Assembly (NCBI GenBank): GCA_004296455.1
Contig: AP018280.1
Span: 6,188,794-6,252,793, forward strand
Direction: 5' to 3'
Length of the DNA stretch: 64,000 nt
Source of the DNA: Calothrix sp. NIES-4101
Lineage (GTDB): Bacteria; Cyanobacteriota; Cyanobacteriia; Cyanobacteriales; Nostocaceae
Positions 24,646-31,023 of the stretch are shown piece after piece (the stretch's first letter is position 1; each line of letters begins with the position of its first letter). The position numbers and the translations under genes are program-made. Under the pieces are notes generated by a model. It was not told the origin of the DNA. It worked only from the letters and a program-made list of their open reading frames with translations, and searched no databases.

Positions 24646-25278
24646 GTGCCAAAAATTATTGCAGTTGTTAATGGTAAAGGCGGAGTTGGTAAAACAACTA
24701 CCGCAGTTAATCTGGCAGCAACTTTCGCAGAACAGCAAAAAGTGCTTCTTGTTGATGCCGATATTCAAGGTTCTGCAAGCTGGTGGTTTGGACGCAGCCA
24801 GAATGGAATGGGATTTGACCTATCTCAAGATACAAATCCTCAACTTTTAAGTCATTTGCGTAAAATAAAAGGTTACGATTTAGTTATAGTAGATACGCCT
24901 CCAGCGCTACACTCAGAAGCTTTAGCAGCAGTTGTGGGAATTGCTGATTACTTAGTTTTACCCACTCCTCCAGCACCAATGGATTTAGCTGTGCTTGTTG
25001 ATACGGTGAAATCAGCAGTTGCTCCTGTGGGAACTCCTCACCGAGTCCTGTTGACAAAAGTTGATACGCGAAGTTTAGGAGAAGCTCTGGAAGCTCAAAA
25101 TGCTTTGATGGAGCTAGAAATTCCTGCCTGTAATGCTTTCATTCGTATTTATAAAGCTCACGAGCGAGCAGTGCTTGATGGTGTACCAATTACACAATGG
25201 CGGGGAAAAAATGGGCGCGAGGCAGAATCTGACTACCGTCGCGTTGCCGAAGAATTACAACGAGACTGGAGAAAATAA
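24646..25278 (+). CDS. mcdA: ParA-family ATPase, probable McdA (carboxysome positioning)
   Basis: 210 aa starting at GTG (MPKIIAVVNGKGGVGKTT). Deviant Walker A KGGVGKTT at 11-18 keeps the signature Lys, then VLLVDADIQGSASWW and VIVDTPPA. Short, without the N-terminal HTH of plasmid ParA. Its stop codon shares one base with the next start, so the two genes are translationally coupled. Known cyanobacterial McdA forms ATP-dependent gradients on the nucleoid that space carboxysomes; type 2 McdA keeps the signature Lys. The coiled-coil partner and nearby ccmK3-ccmK4 support this reading. The alternative is an orphan ParA/MinD-like ATPase for another cargo. Confidence 0.7.
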   Translation: MPKIIAVVNGKGGVGKTTTAVNLAATFAEQQKVLLVDADIQGSASWWFGRSQNGMGFDLSQDTNPQLLSHLRKIKGYDLVIVDTPPALHSEALAAVVGIADYLVLPTPPAPMDLAVLVDTVKSAVAPVGTPHRVLLTKVDTRSLGEALEAQNALMELEIPACNAFIRIYKAHERAVLDGVPITQWRGKNGREAESDYRRVAEELQRDWRK

Positions 25279-25934
25279 TGGCTAAGAGACAACTCACCGA
25301 CTTAATACAAGACGAAGCGAAAAAGATTCCGACCCCTGCTCAAGATTCAGTAATTGATGTTACCGCAACAGCAGTTAAACCTTCTGAGCAAAAAGAAGAC
25401 AAGGAAGCAAAAATCTCGGATATTAAAGCAAAAACCGAAACGGAAAATACTGAAAATATAGAAGAAGAAGAAAAAAACAACTCAAAACGTACTCATCCCA
25501 CAAAAGCAGACTTAGAAGTAACCGTCAACGACTTAAACGAATTGCTCACAGAAGCTCGCGATCGCCAAACTAATTTACAACAAGAAATTGACAATTTACA
25601 GTCAACTTTATCTGAACAACAAGCCAAATCGAACGCTTTAGCAAAAGAGCTTCAAGAAGCAAAAACAGCAGCTATACATCTTGCAGATGCTAATTCACAA
25701 TTAAACGCAGAAATTAACACATTGAAGCAGGAAAAAGCTGAATTTGAGCAAGAAAAAGCACAAATTGCCTTAGTTCAACAAACAAAGCAAAAACCAGCCC
25801 AAGAAACTTACAAACCAGTATTACACCATAAAAAATCCTATCACGCATTTGATAGAAGACCGATTGAACCATTACCAACAAGAGAATCGGAAGAACAAAA
25901 AGAGAATTCTTCTCCAATGTGGCTGCTAGACTAA
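25278..25934 (+). CDS. mcdB: Coiled-coil partner of ParA-type ATPase, probable McdB
   Basis: 218 aa. Charged N-terminus MAKRQLTDLIQDEAKK, a disordered Glu/Lys/Thr region (30-75), a long Gln/Glu-rich coiled coil (about 78-165) and a disordered C-terminal part ending MWLLD with Trp at 215. McdB proteins, as described, have a disordered charged N-terminus, a central Gln-rich coiled coil and an invariant C-terminal Trp; this matches. McdB links carboxysomes to McdA and can form condensates. Start overlaps the stop of the ATPase gene by one base. Sequence similarity between McdB proteins is low, so this is a call from architecture and context. Confidence 0.65.
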   Translation: MAKRQLTDLIQDEAKKIPTPAQDSVIDVTATAVKPSEQKEDKEAKISDIKAKTETENTENIEEEEKNNSKRTHPTKADLEVTVNDLNELLTEARDRQTNLQQEIDNLQSTLSEQQAKSNALAKELQEAKTAAIHLADANSQLNAEINTLKQEKAEFEQEKAQIALVQQTKQKPAQETYKPVLHHKKSYHAFDRRPIEPLPTRESEEQKENSSPMWLLD

Positions 25935-26019
25935 GATAATTAGTCTCATGGCAATTTAGTCTAATTTAGAGTTTAAATACAAAATAAATACAAGACTAAA
26001 TGCAACAATAGAAGCAAAA

Positions 26020-26090
26020 CTGGTGCTGTATTTATGAGCAAGCGTTCCCTTATAGAACGCTTATTTGCTATGTTTTAAGTGCAGCACCAG
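26020..26090. repeat. 71-nt two-part inverted repeat between mcdB-like gene and ilvE
   Basis: Outer arms CTGGTGCTG (26020-26028) and CAGCACCAG (26082-26090) pair perfectly; inner arms AGCAA-GCGTTC and GAACGC-TT-x-TTGCT pair with a 4-nt bulge. No T-tract follows. Could be a dispersed palindromic repeat, a processing site or a small structured RNA; it lies in the 191-nt gap upstream of ilvE. Confidence 0.75.
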
Positions 26091-26125
26091 AGAATTAACA
26101 GAATTAAAAGGCTACAGTATTTCCC

Positions 26126-27040
26126 ATGTACAACTTCTTACCTATTGCTTTCTTTGAAAATAAATTTGTACCATTTGCTGAAGCAAAAATTTCTATTGCT
26201 ACCCATGCACTTCACTATGGAACTGGCGCTTTAGGCGGTTTACGCGGTATTCCTAACCCCCAAAATCCTAATCAAGTATTATTATTTAGATTAGATCGTC
26301 ACTGTCAAAGATTAAGTACTAGTGCTAGGTTTCTTCATTACGATATTTCAGCCGAAAAAATTCAAGAAACAATTATTGATTTCGTTAAAAAAAATCGTCC
26401 TTCAGTTTCATTTTATATGCGTCCTTTTGTCTACACTGCTGACTTAGGAATTGCGCCCAGATTACACAATATTCAAAAAGATTTCTTTGTTTATGGCTTG
26501 GAATTGGGTGAATATTCTTCACCTGAGGGTGTCAGTTGTCGAATTAGTTCCTGGTATCGTCAAAATGATGTGAGCTTCCCATTGCGAGGTAAAATTAGCG
26601 CTGCTTACATCACTTCTTCGCTGGCAAAAACAGAAGCAATTGAATCTGGTTTTGATGAAGCCATTTTGATGAACTCCCAAGGAAAAGTCAGCGAAGCTTC
26701 GGGAATGAATATTTTTATAGTTAGAAATGGGCAGATTTTCACACCTGGATTTGAACAAGATATTTTAGAAGGAATTACCCGTGATAGCGTGATGAAAATT
26801 GCTGGTGATTTGGGTATTAAAGTTGTTGAAAGACCAATTGATAAGTCAGAATTGTTTATTGCCGATGAAGTTTTTTTGTGCGGGACTGCGGCTAAGGTTT
26901 TACCTGTCAAGCAAATAGAAAATTTTACCTTACCAGAAACTAGACCTGTCACTGAAAAATTGCGAGAAAAATTTACAGCAATTACAGAGAATCGTGAACC
27001 AGATTATCAAGATTGGGTTTTTCCTATTTCGATTGACTAG
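26126..27040 (+). CDS. ilvE: Branched-chain amino-acid aminotransferase (class IV)
   Basis: 304 aa, family length. Opening F-x-x-x-x-VPFAEAKISIATHALHYGTGALGGLRG is the class IV aminotransferase N-terminus; the PLP Lys is in PLRGKISAAYITSS, and SEASGMNIFIV corresponds to the cofactor-binding turn. Transaminates leucine, isoleucine and valine with 2-oxoglutarate. Monocistronic; ends in a hairpin shared with the convergent hydrolase gene. D-alanine or aminodeoxychorismate lyase relatives share the fold, but length and motifs favour IlvE. Confidence 0.93.
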   Translation: MYNFLPIAFFENKFVPFAEAKISIATHALHYGTGALGGLRGIPNPQNPNQVLLFRLDRHCQRLSTSARFLHYDISAEKIQETIIDFVKKNRPSVSFYMRPFVYTADLGIAPRLHNIQKDFFVYGLELGEYSSPEGVSCRISSWYRQNDVSFPLRGKISAAYITSSLAKTEAIESGFDEAILMNSQGKVSEASGMNIFIVRNGQIFTPGFEQDILEGITRDSVMKIAGDLGIKVVERPIDKSELFIADEVFLCGTAAKVLPVKQIENFTLPETRPVTEKLREKFTAITENREPDYQDWVFPISID

Positions 27041-27052
27041 TTTAAAATTTTT

Positions 27053-27085
27053 AGATTCTCGTTTCTTTCAAGAAGACGAGAGTCT
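27053..27085. terminator. Bidirectional terminator between ilvE and hydrolase gene
   Basis: AGATTCTCGTTT pairs with AGACGAGAGTCT (12 bp with two G-T pairs) between two convergent genes whose stop codons are only 50 bp apart. Ends almost on the hydrolase stop codon at 27088. Confidence 0.7.
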
Positions 27086-27087
27086 GA

Positions 27088-27999
27088 TCATTTGTTTGAT
27101 CTGGCAAAATCTAGTATATGGTTCGCAGTTATTTGTGGTTGTTCTAAATGCGGGACATGTCCGGAATCTTGAATCCAAATTAGTTCACTATTGGGAATAG
27201 CTCGTTTAAATCTTGCGGCATCTTTTGTGCCCAATATTTTATCAGAATCACCCCACAAAATTAGTGTTTCTTGTTGAATGTTCATTAATTCTTTGAATCT
27301 AAAAGCACTATAACCACCGCTTTTGGTAAAATCAATTAAAGCTGTATTCCAGTTAGGTAATTCTAAATGCAAAGCCGCACAAAGTTGAGCATCAATAGAA
27401 GCTAGTTCCTTATTTTTATAGGCAGCACGGGATATATTCTGACGAACTTTTGGACTTCTCAAAAAATTTGTGAGCCAAGTATCTAAAGGCGAAAACATGA
27501 ATTTGACTAATGGAGAACCACCAGCTAAACCCGCACTATCAATTAATATTAGTTTTTCGACAATTTCCGGATAAGTAATAGTAAAATCTATAGCTGCGGC
27601 ACCGCCCATCGAAGCGCCAACTAAAATAACTGGTTGGTTAATCAGTGTTTTCCAGAAATAATAAAGGTGGGTTTTGATAGCTGCTGGACTATATTTAATT
27701 CCCGGAATTCTATCGGTAAAACCAAAACCTAAAATATCAACTACCCAAGTATCCCTTTCTGCTGCTAGAAGTGGCAAAAGACGGCGGAATTCTAATAAAG
27801 AACTATCAAAACCATGAATTAGCAAAAATGGCGTTTTCCCATTACCTTGCCCTTGGGGAACTTGATGAACATAGGCAGTAGTAACGGTTTTCTCTGCAAG
27901 CGGAGTAGAGATTTCGGCAAGCTCAATTTGTTGCGCGATCGCAATTGAAGCCGCTTCGGTAAGTTGTGCGACTTTAGTAGGTAAGAAACTTGGAAACAT
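27088..27999 (-). CDS. Alpha/beta hydrolase
   Basis: 303 aa. HGFDSSLLEFRRLLP oxyanion region, GASMGG nucleophile elbow, DSDKILG acid and DSGHVPHLEQP catalytic His. Matches the large cyanobacterial/plastid family of epoxide-hydrolase-like or haloperoxidase-like hydrolases. No signal peptide. Substrate unknown. Sits between ilvE and ccmK3 on the opposite strand, so it is not part of a carboxysome operon. Confidence 0.88.
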   Translation of the reverse strand: MFPSFLPTKVAQLTEAASIAIAQQIELAEISTPLAEKTVTTAYVHQVPQGQGNGKTPFLLIHGFDSSLLEFRRLLPLLAAERDTWVVDILGFGFTDRIPGIKYSPAAIKTHLYYFWKTLINQPVILVGASMGGAAAIDFTITYPEIVEKLILIDSAGLAGGSPLVKFMFSPLDTWLTNFLRSPKVRQNISRAAYKNKELASIDAQLCAALHLELPNWNTALIDFTKSGGYSAFRFKELMNIQQETLILWGDSDKILGTKDAARFKRAIPNSELIWIQDSGHVPHLEQPQITANHILDFARSNK

Positions 28000-28173
28000 A
28001 AATATTATTTTACCCCGAAATGAGTATCGGGGAAAGCAAAAAACAAGATTGAGAAATTAGGAGAAATTATCTCGTTGTCCTCAGCTATCTATAAATTCCC
28101 TGTCTTCCCCTTCTCCCCTTTTCCCTGTAAAATTAAATTCACTCTCTTAGAAAGCCTGTTGGAGATAAAATTA

Positions 28174-28485
28174 ATGCCCCAAGCGGTTGGCGTAATCGAA
28201 ACTTTGGGTTTTCCTGCTGTACTCGCCGCAGCAGATGCGATGGTAAAAGCCGCCGAAGTGGCGATCGTATATTACGATATTGCAGAAAGCGGACGCTTAA
28301 TAGTTGCCGTGCGCGGACATGTATCAGAAGTTCAGCGTGCGATGGAATCCGGAATTGCAGCAGGTGAAGCCACTTTTGGCGGTCAAGTTATAACCCACTA
28401 TATAGTCCCTAATCCACCAGAAAATGTAGAAGCCGTTTTACCAATTCATTTCACCAGAAAATCAGAACCATTCCGAATTTTTTAA
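28174..28485 (+). CDS. ccmK3: Carboxysome shell protein CcmK3-type (BMC hexamer domain)
   Basis: 103 aa. Single BMC domain: MPQAVGVIETLGFPAVLAAADAM is the family start. Where CcmK2/CcmK4 have an (R/K)-x-G-S pore loop, this protein has YYDIAESGRLIV, lacking the pore motif, which is the hallmark of CcmK3. CcmK3 does not form homo-hexamers well and assembles with CcmK4. GGAGAT ribosome-binding site precedes the ATG at 28174; the open frame upstream is not coding. First gene of the satellite ccmK3-ccmK4 locus, separate from the main ccm operon, which is not in the window. Confidence 0.93.
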   Translation: MPQAVGVIETLGFPAVLAAADAMVKAAEVAIVYYDIAESGRLIVAVRGHVSEVQRAMESGIAAGEATFGGQVITHYIVPNPPENVEAVLPIHFTRKSEPFRIF

Positions 28486-28515
28486 ATAACAGAGTAGGGA
28501 TTAGGAGAATTAGGA

Positions 28516-28566
28516 GTTAAAGCTTCGACTTCGCTCAGCTTTAACATCTCGGCTTCGCTCGATGTT
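28516..28566. repeat. Two overlapping hairpins between ccmK3 and ccmK4
   Basis: GTTAAAGCT (28516-28524) pairs with AGCTTTAAC (28537-28545), and AACATC (28543-28548) pairs with GATGTT (28561-28566). Loops are TCGACTTCGCTC and TCGGCTTCGCTC, a familiar Nostocales repeat phrase. The two stems share bases, so they would compete. They sit in the 219-nt gap between the shell genes. Confidence 0.75.
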
Positions 28567-28704
28567 AATGAATTCATAAATTCCCTCTCCCAATGTCCAA
28601 TACCCAAGACTTCTTATTTTGAAAAATATCTTCCAAAAGATGTAAGAACATTCGTACAATTAGTTTTTAACGCCACATACGTTTACTGATATAGGAGATA
28701 ATCA

Positions 28705-29046
28705 ATGTCGCTACAGGCAGTTGGAGCACTTGAAACAAAAGGATTTCCTGCTGTACTCGCAGCAGCTGATGCAATGGTAAAAGCTGGACGAGTTACTCTT
28801 GTTGGTTACATTCGGGTAGGTAGCGCTCGTTTTACAGTTAACATTCGCGGGGATGTCTCAGAAGTTAAAGCCGCAATGGCTGCGGGTGTTGAAGCTGCTG
28901 AAAACTGCCACGGTGGTGTTTTAGAATCCTGGGTAATCATTCCCCGTCCTCATGAAAATGTTGAGGCTGTTCTACCAATTGCTTATACTGACCAAGTAGA
29001 TCAATATCGACAATCTGTAGAAAACCCAATAGTTCGCAGAAGTTAA
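28705..29046 (+). CDS. ccmK4: Carboxysome shell protein CcmK4-type (BMC hexamer domain)
   Basis: 113 aa. MSLQAVGALETKGFPAVLAAADAM, pore loop GYIRVGSARFTV with the R-V-G-S pore motif, and a C-terminal tail YTDQVDQYRQSVENPIVRRS. This is the CcmK4 pattern. Forms a facet tile of the beta-carboxysome shell, alone or with CcmK3. GGAG ribosome-binding site 8 nt upstream. Its 219-nt distance from ccmK3, with competing hairpins, would allow independent dosage. Confidence 0.94.
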   Translation: MSLQAVGALETKGFPAVLAAADAMVKAGRVTLVGYIRVGSARFTVNIRGDVSEVKAAMAAGVEAAENCHGGVLESWVIIPRPHENVEAVLPIAYTDQVDQYRQSVENPIVRRS

Positions 29047-29212: not shown

Positions 29213-29847
29213 GAAATGTATGATATTTTTCTAAAAATGATTTATGGAGAGTAAATTTGAATGCAAACACAAGGATATCTATGTTGATAATTTTACGGTG
29301 AAATCAACGCTATTAACAGGAAAACTCAATTTGAGGCTTCTGTATATTGCTTTCACTGTGTCAAAAAAAGTAGTTTTTAGCGGCAAAAATAGGTTTATAC
29401 TAGTATAAAAAATATCCATTATTCTGTGTCAATGGCGAAATCCATAGGCATGAAACCTGAGTCTAAAAAACAGCGTCTTTAATGCCAATAAACCTTATTT
29501 ATATGTTGTACATAATTTGTAGGTGCATAATGTCATAAGCTCACAACTGTGCATAACTTGAGACGCTCTGCCACTATATACTCAATAGACTGGTGTCAGG
29601 TAGCTCAAGAGAATTTATGTAATTTACAAAAATTTACATAATAACCAATTCGGTAAAAATGTTTAGAGTTTTGAAAACTCCAATCTCAGAAATGGGAAGA
29701 AAGCATAAAAATCCCGAAAAGACTGCATAAATTGAATGAGTTAAAACGTAATAAAAGTGTAGCTACAGAAAAGTGATAATAACATCACCAATTAGGGTGC
29801 AACTGCCAGTTAATTAAGGTGTATAAGCGGGATAACAGGGGGTTGTG

Positions 29848-31023
29848 ATGCAAACTTTAAAACAGGGTTTCGAGGAGCGCAATCTCACAATGGCAACGGT
29901 TGCGGAAAAACTGGCACAAGAATGGCACTCACGCTTGGAAGTTGAGTGTCCAGAACAAAGTGCAGTCAATCGAGAAAGCATAGTTAATTGGTTATTAGGG
30001 AGCGATCGCAATCGGCTTGACGAGCTAGATCGAAAAGATTTAGAAATTGCCAAGCAAGCGATGGAGTACCGCTATCGAATTTTACAGCAGCGTTATTTGA
30101 ATAAAGGGCGCGATGTTGCTTATCGCAACCTAATTACTCGCTTGGGCAGTTTAGTAACACTGCGGAACAAAATTCAGACTTGGGTAGCATTGAGTCGAGA
30201 CAGACAGCGTTCGGTTATGGACGTATTGCAAGAAGTAATTCAAGAACTATTGCAAAGTGATAATTATATGCTGTCGCAGATGGCTTATATTTCCCAATGC
30301 ACCAGCGAACCCAAGTTAAAAAACACGCTCTTATTTGCTAGCGTTGAAGAATATTGCCTGCGTCCGATCCGTAATCAGCCCTTACTGGTATATCGGTTCG
30401 TTAATTATTTAAGACGCACGCAACGAGGTGGATTAACTCAAGTTCCCACCAGCGACTTAGTGAAATTGGTATCGGAAGAAGTTTTAACCGATGATAGTGA
30501 TAATCGGATCAATTTAGCAGACAATCAAGCAATCGCCGACTACCAAGAAGAGCAGGAACTGGAAGAACAGCAAACCCTGCGAAACGAAGTCAAAGAAGAA
30601 TTTGAGAATTACTTAAGAGAAAACCTTGGGGAAGAAGCAGTATTGTGGTTACGCATGTACCTGCAAGGGAAAACCCAAGATGCGATCGCCAAAAAATTAG
30701 AGAAGCCAATTCGAGAAATTTATCGATTGCGAGAAAAAATTAGCTACCATGCAGTGCGTGTCTTTGCCCTCAAAGGCAGACCTGAACTCGTCGATAGTTG
30801 GTTAGGTACATCCCTGAGCGAACATAACTTTGGCTTGACACAACAACAATGGCAGCAGTTATTAGCAAAAATATCTCCCACCCAAAAGCAAATATTAGAA
30901 TTGCGAAAGGCCGGAGAAAATATCGAAATAATTGCTCAGAAGTTGAAATTAAAAGCACATCAAGCAATGGGAGAATGGACAAAAGTCTATCTCACCGCCC
31001 AGTCATTGCGAAGTGAAGAGTAG
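29848..31023 (+). CDS. hetZ: Heterocyst differentiation regulator HetZ
   Basis: 391 aa. The sequence (MQTLKQGFEERNLTMATVAE, later RGGLTQVPTSDLVKLVSEEV and NFGLTQQQWQQL) is recognisable as HetZ, a conserved DNA-binding regulator of heterocyst differentiation that acts with HetR and HetP. C-terminal helices (KISPTQKQILELRKAGENIEII) look like an HTH of sigma-like type. A GGGG site precedes the start; GTG three bases upstream is an alternative. The 800-nt leader suits a gene with distant, developmentally regulated promoters. I could not identify the published HetR target sequence in it. Confidence 0.92.
   Translation: MQTLKQGFEERNLTMATVAEKLAQEWHSRLEVECPEQSAVNRESIVNWLLGSDRNRLDELDRKDLEIAKQAMEYRYRILQQRYLNKGRDVAYRNLITRLGSLVTLRNKIQTWVALSRDRQRSVMDVLQEVIQELLQSDNYMLSQMAYISQCTSEPKLKNTLLFASVEEYCLRPIRNQPLLVYRFVNYLRRTQRGGLTQVPTSDLVKLVSEEVLTDDSDNRINLADNQAIADYQEEQELEEQQTLRNEVKEEFENYLRENLGEEAVLWLRMYLQGKTQDAIAKKLEKPIREIYRLREKISYHAVRVFALKGRPELVDSWLGTSLSEHNFGLTQQQWQQLLAKISPTQKQILELRKAGENIEIIAQKLKLKAHQAMGEWTKVYLTAQSLRSEE

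What the first reader, a model, noticed from the sequence alone, without database searches (positions are those of the whole stretch)
24646..29046. Candidate McdA/McdB carboxysome-positioning pair about 2.2 kb from ccmK3-ccmK4
Seen: a short ParA-type ATPase with KGGVGKTT, overlapping by one base a 218-aa disordered/coiled-coil protein that ends MWLLD; ~2.2 kb on, two BMC shell genes. Known: McdA is ParA-type and McdB has a disordered charged N-terminus, Gln-rich coiled coil and an invariant C-terminal Trp; type 2 McdA keeps the signature Lys. Inferred: this is a type 2 McdAB system, and its proximity to the shell genes suggests a loose carboxysome locus, although ilvE and a hydrolase on the other strand break any operon.
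Basis: partly seen in the sequence, partly recalled or inferred. Interest (0 to 1): 0.7.

Follow-up and report, generated by a model that had tools for sequence, protein, structure and literature searches.

The report
Carboxysome-positioning pair McdA-McdB beside shell genes
The window carries an ordinary, intact two-gene motor that should space CO2-fixing carboxysomes along the DNA of a cyanobacterium; many related species, bloom formers among them, have lost the motor gene but kept its carboxysome-binding partner, which hints that the partner has a second job.

Summary
Observation and interpretation hold. A 210-aa ParA ATPase with KGGVGKTT (24646-25278) overlaps by one base a 218-aa partner (25278-25934: N-terminal helix, disordered stretch, central coiled coil, end MWLLD); ccmK3-ccmK4 begin 2.24 kb downstream. 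The defining features of beta-McdAB type 2 that I tested are met, except Gln-richness (inconclusive). McdB is single-copy; the main ccm cluster lies 1.25 Mb away. The linkage is conserved: of 129 family genomes with both coordinates listed, mcdB lies within 10 kb of ccmK3 in 83, same strand and upstream in all 83. So: a new member of a known kind. What the search added: of 217 family genomes held, 166 have both genes, 44 mcdB without mcdA, 0 the reverse, 7 neither. In 11 of the 44, remnants of mcdA stand just upstream of mcdB (a shared internal deletion in Nodularia kin, a split by an insertion, stubs), so mcdA was lost in place, about five times on a tree of 37 rows, while mcdB stayed under purifying selection and kept its C-terminal Trp. 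Orphan McdB proteins are already in print; the decay series is the useful part.

The parts
24646..25278 (+). mcdA, type 2: ParA-type ATPase, GTG start, signature Lys in KGGVGKTT, 210 aa
25278..25934 (+). mcdB, type 2: 218 aa partner; overlaps mcdA by one base
25278..25337 (+). McdB residues 1-20 with a predicted helix at 4-14; the matching region of Halothiobacillus neapolitanus McdB binds McdA (paper)
   Evidence: (paper passages)
25503..25787 (+). McdB residues 76-170, predicted single long helix (coiled coil)
25920..25931 (+). McdB C-terminal tip WLLD (Trp215); this Trp binds carboxysomes in other McdB proteins (paper)
   Evidence: (paper passages)
26126..27040 (+). ilvE branched-chain aminotransferase, present between mcdB and the hydrolase in few of the loci seen
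27088..27999 (-). alpha/beta hydrolase, conserved neighbour, divergent from ccmK3
28174..28485 (+). ccmK3-like BMC shell gene
28705..29046 (+). ccmK4-like BMC shell gene

Best explanation
This is a complete beta-McdAB type 2 carboxysome-positioning system. McdB sits on the carboxysome surface through its C-terminal Trp tip, self-associates by its central coiled coil, and its N-terminal helix stimulates nucleoid-bound McdA; McdA is released near each carboxysome and carboxysomes move toward the remaining McdA (Brownian ratchet). Shown here: gene identity, order, conserved residues, predicted architecture, conserved linkage to ccmK3-ccmK4. Inferred from published work on S. elongatus and H. neapolitanus: every step of the mechanism.
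For: ParA family match; signature Lys and short length; one-base overlap; McdB architecture; C-terminal Trp in 55 of 55 paired and 40 of 41 orphan McdB aligned, the exception running off its contig end; outside the family, 6 of 8 McdA loci inspected (L067, L068, L070, L072, L073, L074) have a downstream protein with a Trp within the last four residues, 2 (L069, L071) show none; 166 of 166 McdA-bearing family genomes have McdB; linkage in 83 of 129; the host has a ccm cluster. Type 2 definition: PMC8262871, passages.
Against: Gln-richness is weak (9% overall, best 8 of 40 residues, 141-180). No published type 2 McdB sequence was at hand. NCBIfam's ParA_partition model is matched only below its cut-off (117.5 against 180 bits). 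Linkage to ccmK3 is a family trait: of 41 McdA genomes outside the family, 29 have a ccmK3 match, 11 of these on the same contig, and none within 10 kb. No experiment.
Confidence: 0.93

Rival explanations
1. A plasmid- or chromosome-type ParA with a DNA-bound partner that only happens to lie near shell genes.
For: The ATPase is a generic ParA; three other ParA genes of 30-33% identity lie on contigs C5 and C4 and elsewhere on C1.
Against: The partner has no DNA-binding family match but the McdB C-terminal Trp and architecture; McdA is found in 166 of 217 family genomes; linkage to ccmK3 in 83 of 129 scored, all in one orientation. The ParA elsewhere on C1 (L004) is followed by an 86-aa protein that does not look like McdB.
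Confidence: 0.03
2. In this family McdB is mainly a carboxysome assembly or condensate factor and McdA an optional add-on; positioning happens only where mcdA survives.
For: 44 genomes keep mcdB without mcdA, none the reverse; orphan McdB is under purifying selection (dN/dS 0.39 orphan, 0.36 paired) with an unvarying W-L tip; ccmS lies 59-230 bases upstream of mcdB in 7 of 44. PMC8406218 (passage) reports that in S. elongatus loss of McdB has a stronger division phenotype than loss of McdA.
Against: Does not contradict positioning in the window, where mcdA is intact. The N-terminal helix persists in orphans, so another ATPase is not excluded. Selection estimates are pairwise and not independent; two of 44 orphan McdB genes look damaged or incomplete (G596, G583). 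The same asymmetry is not shown outside the family, where L069 and L071 have McdA with no evident McdB just downstream.
Confidence: 0.3
3. Orphan McdB proteins use a different ParA/MinD ATPase encoded elsewhere.
For: N-terminal helix retained in orphans.
Against: 31 of 44 orphan genomes have no intact match to McdA at E <= 1e-8 (26 no match, 5 remnants only); 13 do have a ParA-like match. More distant ATPases such as MinD were not tested.
Confidence: 0.25

Closest known systems
beta-McdAB type 2 (more ancestral type in beta-cyanobacteria; the McdB of Synechococcus sp. PCC 7002 was studied in vitro)
   Same: McdA with signature Lys and no mid insertion; McdB with charged N-terminus, central coiled coil, C-terminal Trp; adjacent genes
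   Different: Nothing decisive; Gln-rich region weak. Here in a satellite locus with ccmK3-ccmK4
beta-McdAB type 1 (Synechococcus elongatus PCC 7942)
   Same: Same two-gene logic and C-terminal Trp
   Different: Type 1 McdA lacks the signature Lys and has a large mid extension; its McdB has a C-terminal coiled coil (PMC8262871, passages)
alpha-McdAB (Halothiobacillus neapolitanus)
   Same: N-terminal helix with basic residues, C-terminal Trp
   Different: alpha-McdB lacks the coiled coil and has a C-terminal R(V/I)WPD consensus; serves alpha-carboxysomes (passages)
Orphan McdB proteins of cyanobacteria and proteobacteria (mentioned in PMC8406218, passage)
   Same: mcdB kept without mcdA, as in 44 relatives here
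   Different: The window's mcdB is paired; 11 of the 44 relatives still show mcdA remnants in place

Membership tests
[quoted passage not shown]
   KGGVGKTT near the N-terminus; Pfam AAA_31/CbiA
beta-McdAB type 2 | McdA lacks the large mid-protein extension | tested here: met
   210 aa; aligns over residues 4-205 with a 209-aa ParA (3cwq) without long insertion
beta-McdAB type 2 | mcdB directly downstream | tested here: met
   one-base overlap; co-transcription itself not tested
beta-McdAB type 2 | McdB: disordered region plus centrally placed coiled coil | tested here: met
   AlphaFold2: helix 4-14, pLDDT under 50 at 21-68, helix 76-170, low-confidence tail
beta-McdAB type 2 | central Gln-rich region | tested here: inconclusive
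   9% Gln overall, best window 8 of 40 at 141-180
beta-McdAB type 2 | invariant C-terminal Trp | tested here: met
   W215 of 218; in all 14 rows of A1 and 95 of 96 McdB aligned, the other cut by its contig end
beta-McdAB type 2 | low hydrophobicity, biased composition, multivalency | not tested
   only A/I/L/M/F/W/V content was printed (30%), with no comparison set
beta-McdAB type 2 | sequence match to published type 2 McdB proteins | not tested
   no published type 2 sequence was at hand; MacCready 2020 is not held
beta-McdAB type 2 | host encodes beta-carboxysome genes | tested here: met
   four more BMC domains at C1:4.96 Mb; ORFs there read as ccmK1-K2-L-M and N-O (gene names by order and recall)
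beta-McdAB type 2 | McdA nucleoid binding, McdB-stimulated ATPase, McdB on carboxysomes | not testable with these tools
   needs experiment

The most novel reading that the evidence does not exclude
In Nostocaceae McdB is a carboxysome factor in its own right, tied to the ccmK3-ccmK4 and ccmS satellite genes, and McdA is a dispensable motor that has been lost in place about five times, largely in small-genome planktonic bloom formers; the retained N-terminal helix of orphan McdB has a second, unknown partner.
Probability: 0.4. Interest if true: 0.6.

Novelty: new member of a known kind. Interest (0 to 1): 0.4.

Why it matters
The window's pair is textbook. The family around it is a natural deletion series: close species with and without McdA, nearly all with McdB (for example Anabaena catenula, mcdA intact, against Anabaena lutea, a 31-codon stub). 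That makes the open question of what McdB does apart from McdA testable in named strains, and points to CcmK3-CcmK4 and CcmS as the place to look.

Tried and rejected
(1) Chance neighbourhood: rejected by 83 of 129 linked, all co-oriented. Only 129 of the 210 McdB genomes could be scored, because the match tables are cut off (a few rows were filled); 81 were not scored. By plain arithmetic a random gene pair in a 7 Mb genome falls within 10 kb about 0.3% of the time; shared ancestry makes the 83 far fewer than 83 independent events. Outside the family the linkage was absent in the sample (0 of the 11 genomes with McdA and ccmK3 matches on one contig), but in the named locus L127 (Lyngbya confervoides) mcdAB ends 0.2 kb before ccmK3, and in L149 mcdAB is about 6 kb away on the other strand.

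(2) Orphans as assembly gaps: unlikely for most; 16 of the 44 orphan genomes are in 5 contigs or fewer (contig counts), and 11 of 44 carry mcdA remnants in place (the one in G441 is weak by itself, E 8e-3).

(3) Idea that the McdA-binding N-terminus decays once McdA is gone: inconclusive. For: dN/dS of residues 2-20 is 0.37 in orphans against 0.23 in paired, while the coiled coil is 0.34 against 0.30, and D8 is Asp in 54 of 55 paired but 18 of 41 orphans. Against: at positions conserved in paired genera, orphan clades deviate 0.17 (N-terminus), 0.30 (21-56) and 0.18 (coiled coil), against 0.09, 0.08 and 0.07 for paired genera left out one at a time, so the N-terminus is not singled out. The C-terminal tip deviates 0.00 against 0.04.

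(4) Number of losses: the tree asks for 6 changes, 5 forced by starred branches, but it puts intact L108 inside a group whose members share one deletion scar, so one change may be a tree error; I say about five. The tree holds 36 of the 49 named loci and the window; 13 were left out for lack of a linked hydrolase (12 with McdA, 1 without). The 49 are those I chose, as heterocystous-looking, from 75 cyanobacterial loci.

(5) Three of 44 orphan McdB (G478, G583, G596) had no findable start and were dropped; G478 begins at a contig edge or stop, G596 has an internal stop and G583 matches weakly. Paired McdB used there: 55 of 166.

(6) The higher dN/dS of the C-terminal 17 residues in paired genomes (0.49 against 0.21) mixes two versions of the tip (MWLLD and NTWLYD) and should not be read as looser constraint.

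(7) McdA without McdB: none in the family, but L069 and L071 outside it show McdA with no evident McdB just downstream.
Full report
The observation. Pfam gives ParA/AAA_31 for the first protein, nothing for the second, BMC for the two shell proteins, aminotransferase IV and alpha/beta hydrolase for the genes between; NCBIfam calls the aminotransferase ilvE. The window lies at 6.19-6.25 Mb of contig C1 of a 7.59 Mb genome in 6 contigs. No second McdB was found (next match E 0.25). McdA's nearest paralogues are 30-33% identical, on contigs C5 and C4 and once more on C1. The six BMC matches are the two here and four in a cluster 1.25 Mb away; ORFs there read as ccmK1-K2-L-M and N-O (gene names by order and recall).

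What it is. Published type 2 beta-McdAB: McdA keeps the signature Lys and lacks the mid extension; McdB has a charged N-terminus, a Gln-rich middle, a central coiled coil and an invariant C-terminal Trp (PMC8262871, passages; PMC11321042, passages). The features tested are met apart from Gln-richness, which is weak. AlphaFold2 on 18 aligned rows gives a helix at 4-14, low confidence at 21-68, one helix at 76-170 and a low-confidence tail (mean pLDDT 70, pTM 0.34). An orphan McdB (L104, Anabaenopsis elenkinii) gives the same plan: helices 3-16 and 59-138 (mean pLDDT 69). In H. neapolitanus the first 20 residues of McdB are necessary and sufficient to bind McdA and are predicted helical (PMC12204374, abstract and passages), so by inference the helix here is the contact with McdA. 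I could not compare with a published type 2 sequence; the defining paper (MacCready 2020) is not held.

Neighbourhood. In the 217 genomes held of the window's family, ccmK3 is matched in 207, McdB in 210, McdA in 166. Of 129 genomes with listed coordinates for both, mcdB is within 10 kb of ccmK3 in 83 (33 of 40 orphan, 50 of 89 paired), in each case on the same strand with ccmK3 downstream. The usual order is mcdA, mcdB, hydrolase on the other strand, ccmK3, ccmK4; ilvE lies between in the window, L075, L110, L130 and L148, and follows mcdB in G091, where ccmK3 is elsewhere. So it is a conserved satellite carboxysome locus in this family and not an operon. Outside the family the linkage was absent in 11 of 11 genomes where it could be measured on one contig; L127 is an exception among the named loci.

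The orphan series. 166 genomes have both genes, 44 have mcdB only, 0 mcdA only, 7 neither (one of the 7 is 54% complete). The 44 fall in 18 genus codes. A low-threshold search of the 44, with all first-look candidates scored, finds no intact McdA; 26 have no match at E <= 1e-8, 5 have only remnants and 13 have distant ParA-like matches. Among 49 named genomes, 26 have McdA of at least 72% identity; the other 23 have distant ParA matches (about 34%, up to 46% over part of the protein), remnants, or nothing. In fetched regions of all 44 orphans, 11 show mcdA remnants upstream of mcdB. In five Nodularia-type genomes residues 1-53 abut residues 177-210 out of frame with a stop at the junction, and the same scar is readable in G441 and G608. 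G438 keeps the last 31 residues; G470 keeps scraps. G284's main contig has the length reported for Nodularia spumigena CCY9414 (5,462,271 bases; start of the abstract of PMC3610870 in the listing). In 7 of 44 the gene 59-230 bases upstream of mcdB is ccmS, identified by match to the All1292 and Slr1911 structures; the CcmS paper (PMC11635287, passages) describes a chaperone for CcmK1 and has no occurrence of McdB. In 4 of the 16 long paired regions ccmS stands 1.0-3.2 kb upstream of mcdA, so loss of mcdA with what lay between would bring it next to mcdB (inference).

How often. A tree of hydrolase plus K3 plus K4 from 36 named loci and the window needs 6 changes of McdA state, 5 forced by well supported branches. 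The shared Nodularia scar suggests one of these is a tree error, so about five losses. The count does not by itself tell loss from gain; the remnants do.

Is orphan McdB alive? Pairwise dN/dS is 0.39 for orphans (41 sequences, 266 pairs) and 0.36 for paired (55 sequences, 532 pairs). By region, orphan against paired: N-terminus 0.37 and 0.23, residues 21-56 0.67 and 0.46, coiled coil 0.34 and 0.30, last 17 residues 0.21 and 0.49 (the paired set mixes two tip versions). Trp is kept in 40 of 41 orphans, the other running off its contig. Whether the N-terminal helix is specifically relaxed is unsettled: dN/dS and residue D8 say somewhat, the conserved-position count says no more than the rest of the protein. 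These figures are pairwise, share ancestry, and are a guide only.

Literature. PMC8406218 (passages) already says that numerous species have orphan McdB proteins and that McdB seems to have a role outside positioning in S. elongatus. A full-text search for the phrase 'orphan McdB' found that one paper. The listings (titles and beginnings of abstracts) showed no account of mcdA decay in Nostocaceae or of mcdB beside ccmS, but I did not read those papers whole, most subscription papers and MacCready 2020 are not in the library, and I make no claim that either is unpublished.

Verdict. The finding is right and ordinary: a new member of the known type 2 McdAB kind. The added value is the in-place decay series, which turns a known suspicion (McdB works without McdA) into a test in named strains.

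Noticed in passing
window 27088-27999 (-): An alpha/beta hydrolase of unknown substrate is a frequent neighbour of mcdB and, divergently, of ccmK3 in the family; it stays with mcdB in fetched regions without ccmK3 (G592, G593, G596, G499) and with ccmK3 where no mcdB is near (L094, L099, L109).
   Followed up: partly
L199-L205 (G231, G573, G233, G051, G595, G022, G328): ccmS, a CcmK1 chaperone gene, 59-230 bases upstream of orphan mcdB.
   Followed up: partly
window 29845-31023 (+): HetZ-related protein 2 (NF037965, 613.8 bits, cut-off 400), a relative of a heterocyst differentiation factor, downstream of ccmK4; a similar ORF follows ccmK4 in L102.
   Followed up: no
McdB C-termini in the family: Two main versions of the tip, MWLLD and NTWLYD; the large genus g7 holds both. 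They may reflect different shell partners.
   Followed up: no
44 orphan genomes: Orphan genomes are small (median 5.4 Mb; no matching median was computed for paired ones), and named McdA-lacking records include many planktonic genera (Dolichospermum, Aphanizomenon, Cuspidothrix, Nodularia, Anabaenopsis, Sphaerospermopsis; planktonic by recall). Relatedness not controlled.
   Followed up: no
L069, L071: McdA outside the family with no evident McdB immediately downstream, beside an upstream ORF that looks like pheS (pheS by recall).
   Followed up: no
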